From positions 61,586 to 125,585 of the forward strand of contig NEWT02000026.1 in the NCBI GenBank assembly GCA_002869925.2: a stretch of DNA of 64,000 bases, read 5' to 3'. The notes under the pieces were generated by a model. It saw only the letters and a list, made by a program, of their open reading frames with translations. It was not told the origin of the DNA and did no database searches. A program made the translations under genes and the position numbers. Origin of the DNA: Nitrospira sp. CG24A (GTDB lineage: Bacteria; Nitrospirota; Nitrospiria; Nitrospirales; Nitrospiraceae). Shown here in pieces: positions 25,864 through 38,096 of this stretch (its first letter is position 1; the number at the start of each line of letters is the position of its first letter).

Positions 25864-25904
25864 CTACCGCCTCCTGCACCAGTTGCTACAGATGTGATGA
25901 AAAG
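25864..25904 (-). promoter_or_regulatory. Iteron promoter, class A
   Basis: rc: TTTTCATCACATC TGTAGCAAC TGGTGCAGG AGGCGGTAG; 18 bp from TAGCAA to TAAGAC. Confidence 0.7.
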
Positions 25905-25945
25905 ATTCCTGAAAGACAGATGGGCCTCAACATTGCCTCTATTGG

Positions 25946-26689
25946 TTAGGCCATTGCGCTCATCTTGCGACGGGCGAAACCAATCAAGCCGATGACCCCG
26001 CTCCCAAAGAGCCATGCAGCGGCCGGCAAAGGAACCGCCGACAACGATGTCAAATTCCCGATCAAGGTGACATCGCCTTGGCCGCCGGCAAAGACTAACC
26101 GGAACTGTCCGTCCGGGTTTAAGAGGTTGCAGTAGGGGCTGAACGGCGAAAGACTTGAAGGTGTTTCAGGCAATGCATCGTTTGCAAAGACGTTGCTGGC
26201 TGGGTTCAGAAGATTCATGAAGAAATCGCGCGCGTAATAATTGTCGCCGTCTATGATGGGACCGCTCGGCACCACGTTATTGATGCTGGTCGCCATGGTG
26301 TACGATTGGTTAGCGGCGAGAGGGTCCGCATTCACTTGAATGGTGTTTAACGGACCGGCGGGATTGAACGAGAACAGATACGGAGCTCCTGCCATGTTCG
26401 TCACGGATAACCACAAACTCGAAATCGCCCCATTGTATTGACCTACGGTCCCGCTCGCATTCGTGTCAACGGTGTTTGCATCGAACGTGAAGAACCCTGA
26501 TACCATGCTACGAGGGGACAGCCTGGTCGGATCGGTTACCATCCCTCCTATTGAGTGTGGATCGGCGGCAACCAGTTCTCCTGTAAAAATGAAGCTGGCG
26601 CTATGGGCATGTCCACTAGCTGGCATGAATAATCCGATCAAGCCGAGAAAGAACAGCCCCGTCGCGGCTGTTGTGAATCCTGGTTTCAT
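25946..26689 (-). CDS. VPLPA-CTERM sorting domain protein
   Basis: Signal peptide; AVPLPAAAWLFGSGVIGLIGFARRKMSAMA. Confidence 0.92.
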   Translation of the reverse strand: MKPGFTTAATGLFFLGLIGLFMPASGHAHSASFIFTGELVAADPHSIGGMVTDPTRLSPRSMVSGFFTFDANTVDTNASGTVGQYNGAISSLWLSVTNMAGAPYLFSFNPAGPLNTIQVNADPLAANQSYTMATSINNVVPSGPIIDGDNYYARDFFMNLLNPASNVFANDALPETPSSLSPFSPYCNLLNPDGQFRLVFAGGQGDVTLIGNLTSLSAVPLPAAAWLFGSGVIGLIGFARRKMSAMA

Positions 26690-26927
26690 GGTGCGCCTCC
26701 TTCCAATTTAATTATTCGCCTAATAAATGACCTGAACCGACTACTCGAATCCATTGCAAGGACCCGATGCTCAACCGAACATTATTTATTGCGCCTAGCG
26801 ACTCCGCGCTCCCTCCTTCCGTTAAGATCTTCGGGCTCAAGCAAGTTGCTATCTGTTCTTCGGCCTCCTCGAATTCCATCTCCCTTACAGCGCGTAGGAA
26901 AGTTTACCAAGGAGTTTTCAGGGTCTG

Positions 26928-26969
26928 CTATCACCTCGTGCTCCGGTTGCTACAGATGTGACAAAAAAT
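26928..26969 (-). promoter_or_regulatory. Iteron promoter, class A
   Basis: rc: TTTTTTGTCACATC TGTAGCAAC CGGAGCACG AGGTGATAG; 18 bp from TAGCAG to TAAACT. Confidence 0.65.
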
Positions 26970-27200
26970 ACGGGCTGGATAGAGAACGCGTTATCCGAAG
27001 GGTGAGAACATGAACAATAGTCGGCGGTGGCCACTATCTCTGCGGGGGTGAAGTGGAATATGTCAGTCGCGCCGGTTGAGCATCTTTGCCACATGAAGGA
27101 AGGCGGGGCGGCAGTCCTCGCGAGAACGATGTTCATCTGAAGTATAGAAGTATAGTTTGGTATCAAGAATGACTCGAAATAGAGGAACGCTCAGCGTTTA

Positions 27201-27236
27201 ATGTTGCAGGTGGTGCAATGGGTGTAACCAGCGGTA
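27201..27236 (+). promoter_or_regulatory. Iteron promoter, class A
   Basis: TGTTGCAGG TGGTGCAAT GGGTGTAAC CAGCGGTAG; 18 bp from TAGAGG to TATACG. Confidence 0.7.
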
Positions 27237-27323
27237 GAGGAATGGGGTGATCCCGAGATATACGTAGCGCCTATTCGTCATGTGCCATGAAGGCCGGTGT
27301 AACTTTAACTATCGGAGGTATGT

Positions 27324-28223
27324 ATGAATCGTTCAATCGTTCGGTCGGCCGCTGCACTCGTGGGCGCTGTCGGCTTGTTTCTCTCGGTGGGGCAGGCTAC
27401 TGCCCATGTCAACTACGGGAGTTCACTGTATTCAGATTCCAGCATCATCGATCCGGTCACAGGGGTAAATGGTACCGGCATTCTCAATGCCACGCCGGAC
27501 AGAACAGTGTCCAGCAACGCCGGCTGGTTAGCAGGGCAGGATAATACGACCTGGGCCAACAGCCATGACAACCGGTTTCTCTATTTCAACTTGGCGCAAG
27601 CCAGTACGATCGATTTTACGATCACCGGAACTAACACGAACGGGAACGGCCTCTTGAACCCGGGCTTCTCGATCTTCTCAAACATCGCACCGGCAGCTGC
27701 TCATGATGGGTCTACGATCCCTGCTTCGTTCCTTGCCACTCAGACCGGGTTTGCTGATTGGTCGTCATTTGTCGGCACCAATGCTGCCATTACAGCTGCA
27801 GGTGGTGATTCGACCCAAACTGACCATTGGGGATTGTACCGGTCGAATGCCGATTTCACGATGTCCAATGATACCGGCGTTACGGCAGGCACTGTCAAAA
27901 CTCTGACATACACGGGGCTCTCCGAGTCCAACGCCAGCGGTAATAGTGTCTCCGGGAACTATACGCTGGGCCCTGGTGTTTATAGCTTGGTCGTCGGCGG
28001 CGCCAATGCCACTGACCTGGCCGCTCTCCTCTCAGATGCGCAGGCGTCGAATTCTGGTGCCACGCCCGGCGCGGCCGCCACGGCCTATGCGAACGACCGT
28101 CTGGCACGGACCTTTAACATCGCCTTCAATGTGACGCCTGTGCCACTGCCGGCAGCGGTGTGGTTGTTCGGAAGCGGGGTGGTCGGTGTCATCGCGTTCG
28201 CACGCCGACGCATATCGGTCTAA
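27324..28223 (+). CDS. VPLPA-CTERM sorting domain protein
   Basis: Signal peptide; PVPLPAAVWLFGSGVVGVIAFARRRISV. Confidence 0.92.
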   Translation: MNRSIVRSAAALVGAVGLFLSVGQATAHVNYGSSLYSDSSIIDPVTGVNGTGILNATPDRTVSSNAGWLAGQDNTTWANSHDNRFLYFNLAQASTIDFTITGTNTNGNGLLNPGFSIFSNIAPAAAHDGSTIPASFLATQTGFADWSSFVGTNAAITAAGGDSTQTDHWGLYRSNADFTMSNDTGVTAGTVKTLTYTGLSESNASGNSVSGNYTLGPGVYSLVVGGANATDLAALLSDAQASNSGATPGAAATAYANDRLARTFNIAFNVTPVPLPAAVWLFGSGVVGVIAFARRRISV

Positions 28224-28252
28224 GTTCGAGCGTTGTCTCTTTGCTAGTAAGG

Positions 28253-36951: not shown

Positions 36952-36955
36952 GGGC

Positions 36956-37034
36956 AACCGAAACGGGGACATGCTGAATTATTGCTGGAGGCTGATCGAG
37001 TCAGGCGACAAGAAAACCAGAATGTCCCTCTTAA
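36956..37034. repeat. Direct repeat R1
   Basis: AACCGAAACGGGGACATGCTGAATTATTGCTGGAGGCTGATCGAGTCAGGCGACAAGAAAACCAGAA.. closely matches 37550-37627. Confidence 0.8.
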
Positions 37035-37157
37035 GGCTTCCCCAAAGATGCTCCAAAACCGCTCCAAGAATCATTGAGTTCTCCCTCAAACGGGGGCACA
37101 ATTCCAATGTGTTCATGCGATTATGAACCTACCTTGTCATACCAAAGGAAATGATAC

Positions 37158-37571
37158 GTGAAACAATTCAAGGTCTATGCAAATCCTCAAGGATGCCATG
37201 ATGCTGTTGAACAAGGTTGGTCGTGGAATGCTTGCGGCTTTGGTCTCTTCTGGGCGCTGTCAAAAAAGATGTGGGCTGTGGGTTTTGGAGTGTTGGCCGT
37301 GTTCTTTGCCATTTGGGGTATTGCGGTTGCGAGCATTGGAATGGAGCAAGCCACTCTCATCATCAATGTGGGAAGCGTTGTGCAGTGTGTGATCTTCGGA
37401 GCCTATGGTCTTAAATGGCAAAAGACTCATCTTGAATCAAGAGGATTCGAGTTCAAGGACACTGTTACCGCGGCAAATGGCAAAGACGCAATTGAGCTGT
37501 ATCTTAAAAAGAACGCAGAAAGTCACAGCGGTAAACCGTCGAGACTGGAAACCGAAACGGGGATATGCTGA
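37158..37571 (+). CDS. Small membrane protein, DUF2628-like
   Basis: WSWNACGFGLFWALSKKMWAVGFGVLAVFFAIWGIAV; its C-terminus runs into direct repeat R2. Confidence 0.6.
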   Translation: MKQFKVYANPQGCHDAVEQGWSWNACGFGLFWALSKKMWAVGFGVLAVFFAIWGIAVASIGMEQATLIINVGSVVQCVIFGAYGLKWQKTHLESRGFEFKDTVTAANGKDAIELYLKKNAESHSGKPSRLETETGIC

Positions 37572-37627
37572 ATTGTTGCCGGAGACTGATCGAGTCACGC
37601 GACAAGAAAGCCAGAACCCCCCTTTAA
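37550..37627. repeat. Direct repeat R2
   Basis: AACCGAAACGGGGATATGCTGAATTGTTGCCGGAGACTGATCGAGTCACGCGACAAGAAAGCCAGAA.. closely matches R1. Confidence 0.8.
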
Positions 37628-37893
37628 ACCCCATTATTCATGAGCGCGTCTGCTGCATCGCGGATTTGCTGCTGCGACGCGCCTTCGGCTGGCAGGCTCG
37701 CCGCTCGCCTCCTCGACGTACTGCAGGGGACTGTCGCCCTTTTCCTGGCAACTGTCCCCGTCTGAGCAGGAGCGGGATAGCACCGCCGCAGACGGCGGAG
37801 CCAGTCCCCTTGGGCTCCGGATGCCCGTCTCGCAACGCGACGGCGCGATTTCGCGATGAACTATCATGAATACTGCGGGTTAAGGCCTCGAAA

Positions 37894-37962
37894 GTTCGCA
37901 AGTCAGAAACCAACCGGAAACAATTTCTCAAGCACATCGCCTTCGAGCTGTTGCTGCGCTAG
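37894..37962 (+). pseudogene. 3' relic of a spermidine-synthase-like gene
   Basis: VRKSETNRKQFLKHIAFELLLR* versus VRKAETYRKRFLERVAFELLLR* at the end of the intact gene. Confidence 0.8.
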
Positions 37963-38055
37963 GCGGGCTGGGCCAGCAAGGGTTCGAAGTTTCGAACACT
38001 TCAGTCCTCAGCCTTGAAGTCCGCCTCACCCATCTTGCGCGCCTCGACCACACAA

Positions 38056-38096
38056 TTTTTCATCGCATCTGTTGTAACTGGTGCACTCATCGGTAG
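38056..38096 (+). promoter_or_regulatory. Iteron promoter, class A
   Basis: TTTTT CATCGCATC TGTTGTAAC TGGTGCACT CATCGGTAG; 18 bp from TAGCCC to TAATCA. Confidence 0.7.

What the first reader, a model, noticed from the sequence alone, without database searches (positions are those of the whole stretch)
25864..38096. Tandem 9-bp iteron promoters (TGTNGCANN)n-CGGTAG shared by VPLPA/PEP-CTERM genes (class A)
Nine sites between 25.8 and 38.1 kb, on both strands, precede sorting-signal genes or their neighbours. Examples in gene orientation: CATCACATC|TGTAGCAAC|TGGTGCAGG|AGGCGGTAG (25.9k); TGTCACATC|TGTAGCAAC|CGGAGCACG|AGGTGATAG (26.9k); TGTTGCAGG|TGGTGCAAT|GGGTGTAAC|CAGCGGTAG (27.2k); TGTCACACC|TGGTGCAGC|TATCGGTAG (28.5k); TGTCACATT|TGTTGCATA|GGGTGCAGG|CCTCGGTAG (33.8k); CATCGCATC|TGTTGTAAC|TGGTGCACT|CATCGGTAG (38.1k). 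In these six, TAG-N3 of the last iteron sits 17-18 bp upstream of a -10-like hexamer (TAAGAC, TAAACT, TATACG, TATGTA, TATAAT, TAATCA). This suggests an activator oligomerising head-to-tail up to a weak -35. Sites at 31.76, 34.02 and 34.76 kb keep the iterons but lack a clear -10. I know of no described PEP-CTERM operator of this form.
Basis: partly seen in the sequence, partly recalled or inferred. Interest (0 to 1): 0.88.

Follow-up and report, generated by a model that had tools for sequence, protein, structure and literature searches.

The report
Repeat-bearing promoters of Nitrospira copper-surface island
A Nitrospira genome carries a family of promoters with short tandem repeats upstream of all its PEP-CTERM surface-protein genes and neighbouring copper-handling genes; the same promoter type recurs across the order Nitrospirales, almost always with a small repeat-binding-type regulator gene close by, which points to an undescribed gene-control system.

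Summary
A matrix trained only on other genomes finds eight of the nine sites at 19.9-35.2 bits (next best 9.8; mean shuffle maximum 10.4). A second model built without the window finds 12 sites in the whole 3.36-Mb genome, all inside this 64-kb window. All eight VPLPA-CTERM matches in the genome lie at 25-40 kb. Six directly follow a site and two follow in the same operon.

The motif belongs to a larger promoter family, TGTAGCATCCGTGAGCA-N4-TCGGTAGAC-N~18-TATA, found in 140 of 240 Nitrospirales genomes and in no sampled phylum genome outside that order. The wider class drives copper-type genes (CutF/CruR-like RAPP peptides, TonB-cluster genes). The window's class A adds an upstream T-tract and TCACATC unit and serves PEP-CTERM, CorA-like and MauG-like genes.

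Most likely regulator: small HTH_17 proteins (three copies in the window) related in fold to BldC, which binds 9-bp direct repeats head-to-tail. They co-occur with the motif in 126 genomes (14 motif only, 6 HTH only, 94 neither).

A second candidate for class A is a membrane-anchored PhoB-like regulator whose anchor is an internal PEP-CTERM signal. Binding and copper response are inferred, not shown.

The parts
25831..25906 (-). class A site; drives PEP-CTERM gene 25058-25609 and probably the anchored regulator 23657-24979
   Evidence: R1 46.0 bits; R2 21.7 bits; independent matrix 34.4 bits
26896..26970 (-). class A site; drives PEP-CTERM gene 25946-26689
   Evidence: R1 40.9 bits; independent matrix 34.5 bits
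27197..27267 (+). class A-like site (TGTTGCAGG variant); drives PEP-CTERM gene 27324-28223
   Evidence: R1 30.3 bits; R2 12.6 bits; orthologous sites L064 13111, L066 10663
28510..28570 (+). class A short-form site; drives CorA-like PEP-CTERM gene 28626-29393 and probably 29467-30063 and 30088-31719
   Evidence: R1 32.4 bits; independent matrix 29.8 bits
31757..31785 (+). degenerate class A site (upstream part only) before the PEP-CTERM protein ending at 33376
   Evidence: R1 15.3 bits; independent matrix 19.9 bits; no R2 hit
33797..33870 (-). class A site with TATAAT -10; nearest ORF is 33514-33645 (43 aa, one helix)
   Evidence: R1 40.8 bits; R2 20.6 bits; ORF
34012..34086 (+). class A site; drives exported 143-aa protein 34135-34566
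   Evidence: R1 50.7 bits; orthologous sites in L061 and L064
34761..34836 (+). class A site; drives MauG/MbnH-like di-haem protein 34864-36951 (likely start 34930)
   Evidence: R1 42.5 bits; Pfam CCP_MauG
38054..38129 (+). class A site; drives PEP-CTERM gene 38178-38888 and probably 39021-39800
   Evidence: R1 48.1 bits; R2 24.3 bits
1690..1754 (-). class B site; drives small RAPP protein 1320-1667
   Evidence: R2 35.7 bits; gene
48231..48297 (-). class B site with extra upstream units; drives small RSPP protein 47770-48147, followed by HTH_17 gene 47258-47575
   Evidence: R2 41.1 bits
51602..51672 (-). class B site; drives small RAPP protein 51233-51580
   Evidence: R2 33.5 bits
54470..54526 (-). 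class B site, best in genome; drives small RAPP protein 54100-54447
   Evidence: R2 48.1 bits
59000..59064 (-). class B site; drives BNR-repeat protein 57696-58958
   Evidence: R2 26.2 bits; Pfam BNR_2
494..805 (-). HTH_17 (excisionase/BldC-like) regulator; native start probably 742
   Evidence: Pfam HTH_17 45.6 bits; Foldseek top hits Xis 4j2n and BldC-DNA 6ama/6amk
47258..47575 (-). HTH_17 regulator, second copy
   Evidence: Pfam HTH_17 38.8 bits
59570..59791 (-). HTH_17 regulator, third copy (matched stretch)
   Evidence: protein search of own genome (C19:121155-121376); reading frame
23657..24979 (-). membrane-anchored PhoB-like regulator: signal peptide, exported part, PEP-CTERM-like transmembrane segment, degenerate receiver, winged helix
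   Evidence: Trans_reg_C 70.1 bits; PhoB model 7e-29; family alignment; fold search

Best explanation
The sites are activator-dependent promoters of a copper-handling and surface-protein gene island. Small HTH_17 proteins encoded in the island, related in fold to BldC and Xis, bind the 9-10-bp TGTNGCA/GAGCA units as head-to-tail multimers. The array ends at a weak -35-like CGGTAG(AC), and this helps the main sigma factor use an extended -10 (TGNTATA) at a fixed distance. The order-wide class B core serves copper uptake and sensing genes. In one group of Nitrospira the core gained an upstream T-tract/TCACATC unit (class A) and came to serve all PEP-CTERM genes. A membrane-anchored PhoB-like regulator encoded behind the first class A promoter probably adds a second, envelope-derived input there. 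Shown: motif, fixed geometry, genomic confinement, conservation, and co-occurrence with HTH_17. Inferred: binding, activation, the copper signal, and the role of the anchored regulator.
For: Geometry is conserved over 54 sites from two families, with GGTAG to -10 TA at 20-21 bp in most. R2 finds 12 sites in the whole genome, all in this window. The three HTH_17 genes of this subfamily are in the same window. Across 240 order genomes: both 126, motif only 14, HTH only 6, neither 94, Fisher 3e-43; within the genus 12/3/1/16, p = 3e-5. HTH_17 is the only transcription factor I recognised among genes shared by motif clusters beyond the genus subset. In closed genomes where both coordinates are listed, an HTH_17 gene lies about 0.05-6 kb from a site. 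Fold search ranks Xis first and BldC-DNA complexes next, rmsd 1.2-1.5 A. BldC protomers bind 9-bp direct repeats head-to-tail (PMC5859096). BldC residues Leu11, Glu16, Val23, Arg30 and Trp31 are matched. Copper theme: CorA-like protein over cut-off, MauG/MbnH-like proteins, CAWAC...RAPP peptides like CutF/CruR.
Against: No binding or expression data. Co-occurrence partly reflects shared gene clusters and relatedness. Class B spacing is mostly 10 bp, not 9. The BldC consensus AATTXXXXC is not seen, and several BldC interface residues differ. NCBIfam HTH_BldC is far below cut-off (23.8 against 77 bits). Some genomes have the motif without a detected HTH_17 (G001, G003, G011). The two TonB receptors match haem, siderophore or PQQ models rather than copper ones.
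Confidence: 0.6

Rival explanations
1. The anchored PhoB-like regulator, not HTH_17, is the activator that reads class A: its winged helix binds the TCACATC/TGTWGCA repeats as a tandem dimer, as PhoB does on pho boxes, and controls its own operon and the other PEP-CTERM genes.
For: Full-length regulator found in 6 of 7 class A genomes of the genus and in none of the 25 others, Fisher 8e-6. Two further named loci (UBA5698, RBC100) show site, PEP-CTERM gene and regulator in the same order. It lies directly behind the first class A promoter. PhoB-type domains bind direct repeats next to the -35 (own knowledge).
Against: OmpR/PhoB repeats are normally spaced 10-11 bp, class A 9 bp. The core is shared with class B in genomes that lack this regulator. 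Co-occurrence is also explained by its position in the same operon.
Confidence: 0.3
2. CGGTAGAC plus GTATA is the promoter of an alternative (ECF-type) sigma factor, and the upstream repeats are secondary.
For: Both elements are highly conserved at a nearly fixed distance.
Against: I recognised no sigma factor gene among those shared by the motif clusters. The upstream repeats are at least as conserved as the -35/-10. The -10 is close to an ordinary extended -10.
Confidence: 0.1
3. The similarity is a passive trace of recent gene duplication; the repeats have no function.
For: Several PEP-CTERM genes are similar and sit side by side.
Against: Sites precede unrelated genes (peroxidases, BNR protein, small peptides), lie on both strands, and are conserved across two families while the flanks are not.
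Confidence: 0.03
4. They are sigma-54 promoters of the known PrsK/PrsR type.
For: PrsR and sigma-54 are linked to PEP-CTERM genes elsewhere (PMC1569441, PMC9850573). TGTCAC-N5-TTGCA looks superficially like a -24/-12 pair.
Against: The near-invariant GG of the -24 box is absent from this unit, and a separate -10 is conserved 20-21 bp after GGTAG.
Confidence: 0.02

Closest known systems
BldC (Streptomyces) and Xis-type recombination directionality factors
   Same: Small MerR-like winged helix without a dimerisation coil; BldC forms head-to-tail multimers on 9-bp direct repeats (PMC5859096); closest solved folds to the window protein
   Different: Different repeat consensus; sites abut the -35 of copper and PEP-CTERM genes; HTH_BldC model not met; oligomerisation not shown
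PrsK/PrsR-RpoN control of PEP-CTERM genes
   Same: Coordinated control of PEP-CTERM genes near an exosortase/EPS locus (PMC1569441, PMC9850573)
   Different: Here no -24/-12 element; repeat array plus extended -10
CruR/CutF copper-sensing leader proteins (DUF2946)
   Same: Class B promoters drive short exported proteins with CxxxC and a C-terminal RAPP in TonB-receptor clusters (PMC9426467, PMC9973294)
   Different: Pfam DUF2946 score below cut-off (18.2 and 15.8 against 23.7); arrest not tested; those papers describe control after transcription start, not this promoter
CorA/CorB-type copper-repressible surface proteins of methanotrophs
   Same: CorA-like Cu(I) protein (30.3 against 27 bits) and MauG-like di-haem proteins in the class A regulon (PMC3912023)
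   Different: Here the CorA-like protein carries a PEP-CTERM signal; copper repression not shown
Transmembrane transcription regulators (ToxR/CadC-like, hybrid TTRs)
   Same: Membrane-anchored one-chain winged-helix regulator with receiver-like domain (PMC10269533)
   Different: Exported part is N-terminal and the anchor is an internal PEP-CTERM sorting signal

Membership tests
BldC family | MerR-like winged helix without coiled coil | tested here: met
   HTH_17 45.6 bits; Foldseek BldC-DNA chains, TM by target 0.76-0.85
BldC family | NCBIfam HTH_BldC model over cut-off | tested here: not met
   23.8 and 25.0 bits against 77; TIGR01764 excise is met instead, 44.6 against 28.8
BldC family | 9-bp direct repeats at the target | tested here: inconclusive
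   Class A 9 bp; class B mostly 10 bp; target assignment itself is inferred
BldC family | Head-to-tail interface residues (Leu11, Glu16, Phe21, Arg22, Val23, Trp31, Ile40, Thr42, Leu43, Gly44) | tested here: inconclusive
   Leu11, Glu16, Val23, Trp31 kept; Phe21 to Leu; positions 40-44 differ
BldC family | Cooperative binding of repeats | not testable with these tools
   needs protein
PrsR/sigma-54 PEP-CTERM promoters | GG at -24 and GC at -12 | tested here: not met
   No GG in the YRTCRC unit; conserved -10 downstream
PrsR/sigma-54 PEP-CTERM promoters | PrsK/PrsR genes in the genome | not tested
   not searched
CruR/CutF (DUF2946) | Pfam DUF2946 over cut-off | tested here: not met
   18.2, 15.8 and no hit for three window proteins
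CruR/CutF (DUF2946) | Cys pair and C-terminal RAPP | tested here: met
   CAWAC and RAPP in 1320-1667, 51233-51580, 54100-54447; CxxxC as in CutF, not CxxC as in CruR
Transmembrane transcription regulators | Transmembrane helix plus DNA-binding domain in one chain | tested here: met
   Predicted helix 129-149 (low confidence) and Trans_reg_C 317-391
PEP-CTERM signal inside the anchored regulator | P-x-P motif, hydrophobic segment, basic cluster | tested here: met
   Intact in about 30 of 112 homologues by pattern, e.g. QPVPVPAAVMLFGSGLFGIVGVVIRR; partly decayed in the window copy
PEP-CTERM signal inside the anchored regulator | Cleavage by exosortase | not testable with these tools
   needs protein

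The most novel reading that the evidence does not exclude
A transcription factor anchored by a real PEP-CTERM sorting signal reports exosortase activity. Cleavage of its exported passenger at the P-x-P motif changes the state of its cytoplasmic winged helix at class A promoters, so the cell matches the supply of sorting substrates to its sorting capacity, while BldC-like multimers on the same array report copper.
Probability: 0.15. Interest if true: 0.92.

Novelty: new variant of a known kind. Interest (0 to 1): 0.74.

Why it matters
In the papers searched I found no PEP-CTERM regulon outside the PrsR/sigma-54 type and no transcriptional copper regulon of Nitrospira. Several genomes with the system are Nitrospira assemblies named RSF and CG24C, which I recall as sand-filter comammox bacteria, whose ammonia monooxygenase needs copper. 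If right, the finding gives a ready promoter code, a candidate regulator and a defined gene set for studying how nitrifiers get copper, and links protein sorting to metal supply. The regulator anchored by a sorting signal is a new arrangement in its own right.

Tried and rejected
A loose 16-mer pattern with two mismatches gave 111 matches against 92 in the reversed control and is useless alone; only exact matches clustered. Several exact pattern hits in relatives looked like coding sequence and were dropped. The anchored regulator was my first choice as the iteron-binding protein; I moved it to second because class B occurs in many genomes without it. Sigma-54 and ECF readings were considered and disfavoured. 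Literature searches for a Nitrospira copper regulon or a PEP-CTERM-anchored regulator found nothing on point.
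Full report
WHAT WAS CHECKED. The nine sites are present at the stated coordinates. To avoid circularity I trained a 20-position matrix on 19 sites from other genomes only. It scores eight of the nine window sites at 19.9-35.2 bits, while the next window match has 9.8. 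In 200 dinucleotide shuffles the mean maximum was 10.4 and the highest single value 21.4. The ninth site (27.2 kb) is a TGTTGCAGG variant. R2, built without window sequence, recovers it at 12.6 bits, and orthologous genes in two relatives have the same variant.

ANATOMY. Aligning 37 sites, nearly all from Nitrospira, gives a T-tract, then (C/T)(A/G)TCACATC, TGTWGCA, a GGTGCA or ATGAGCA unit, CGGTAG, and an extended -10 of the form TGNTATA. GGTAG ends 20-21 bp before the TA of the -10 in most sites, so it sits where a -35 should be. Two of the three sites said to lack a -10 do have it (34.02 and 34.76 kb); only 31.76 kb is degenerate. Spacing between units is 9 bp in class A and mostly 10 bp in the wider family.

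WHERE IT OCCURS. In the host genome, R2 finds 12 matches, every one inside this 64-kb window. In 240 genomes of the order, 140 have matches. In 399 genomes drawn from the phylum, 88 have matches, all in two families of the same order. Named loci show that the taxon is Nitrospira. Sites come in clusters, up to 17 per genome with R1.

WHAT IT DRIVES. Two classes can be told apart. Class B (TGTAGCATCCGTGAGCA-N4-TCGGTAGACA...TATA) precedes small exported proteins with a C-terminal RAPP (in the window also CAWAC), BNR-repeat proteins, thioredoxin-like proteins and other genes in TonB-receptor clusters. The RAPP proteins resemble CruR and CutF, which sense copper as nascent chains (PMC9426467, PMC9973294), although the Pfam DUF2946 score is below cut-off. 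Class A, limited to a subset of the genus, precedes PEP-CTERM genes in 27 of 35 sites by an automatic rule, 28 on inspection; a few genes are counted twice because they have two arrays. The rest precede MauG-like di-haem proteins, a 143-aa exported protein and a small ORF. One class A gene is a CorA-like Cu(I)-binding protein (compare PMC3912023). All eight VPLPA-CTERM matches of the host genome lie at 25-40 kb. Six directly follow a class A site and two (29467, 39021) follow one of those in the same direction.

WHO BINDS IT. Clustering ORFs from 29 motif-bearing stretches left one DNA-binding protein shared widely: a short HTH_17 protein, 17 copies in 11 genomes, with three in the window. Over 240 genomes the motif and this protein occur together in 126, motif alone 14, protein alone 6, neither 94 (Fisher 3e-43); within the genus alone 12, 3, 1 and 16 (p = 3e-5). 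These p-values ignore relatedness and the fact that the genes are neighbours. In closed genomes where both coordinates are printed the two lie about 0.05-6 kb apart. The predicted fold (core pLDDT about 76-89) matches Pukovnik Xis and then BldC-DNA complexes. BldC binds 9-bp direct repeats as a head-to-tail filament (PMC5859096). The candidate keeps several BldC contact residues, including the DNA-contacting arginine and the tryptophan of the interface, but not all. I therefore say it probably works like BldC, and do not file it as a BldC-family member, since the family model is not met.

A SECOND INPUT. Behind the first class A promoter lies a gene for an unusual regulator (23657-24979): signal peptide, exported part, PEP-CTERM-like membrane segment, degenerate receiver and PhoB-type winged helix. 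Full-length versions occur in 6 of 7 class A genomes of the genus and none of 25 others, and in two more loci with the same order of site, PEP-CTERM gene and regulator. Among 112 homologues 42 match a strict internal-signal pattern, about 30 of them fully intact such as QPVPVPAAVMLFGSGLFGIVGVVIRR, and 48 more match a loose one. Whether exosortase cuts it is unknown.

CONCLUSION. The interpretation needs widening from a PEP-CTERM operator to an order-wide, copper-associated promoter family that one group of Nitrospira has extended to its PEP-CTERM genes. The identity of the binding protein is the main open step.

Noticed in passing
window 23657-24979 (minus); L152:9422-11065; L153:9425-11068: Transcription regulator with a PEP-CTERM sorting signal in the middle of the chain, between an exported passenger and a PhoB-like DNA-binding half; intact in about 30 of 112 homologues, decayed in others.
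   Followed up: partly
window 1320-1667, 47770-48147, 51233-51580, 54100-54447 (minus): Four short exported proteins ending in RAPP or RSPP, three with CAWAC, resembling copper-sensing leader proteins CutF/CruR; possible ribosome-arrest leaders for downstream genes.
   Followed up: partly
L064 13111 and 13307; L066 10471 and 10663; L154 8680 and 8809; L155 8675 and 8804: Two arrays in tandem, about 130-195 bp apart, upstream of the same gene; may be double promoters.
   Followed up: no
L157 6600-16210: A related regulator, apparently without the anchor, sits beside CopC/CopD-like, TonB-like and PEP-CTERM genes, suggesting the regulator lineage is tied to copper genes.
   Followed up: no
window 33514-33645 (minus): A 43-aa single-helix ORF behind a strong class A promoter with a perfect TATAAT; possible unannotated small membrane protein.
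   Followed up: no
window 55006-55041 (minus): Partial array (15.3 bits with R2) without the downstream part, with no clear gene close behind it.
   Followed up: no
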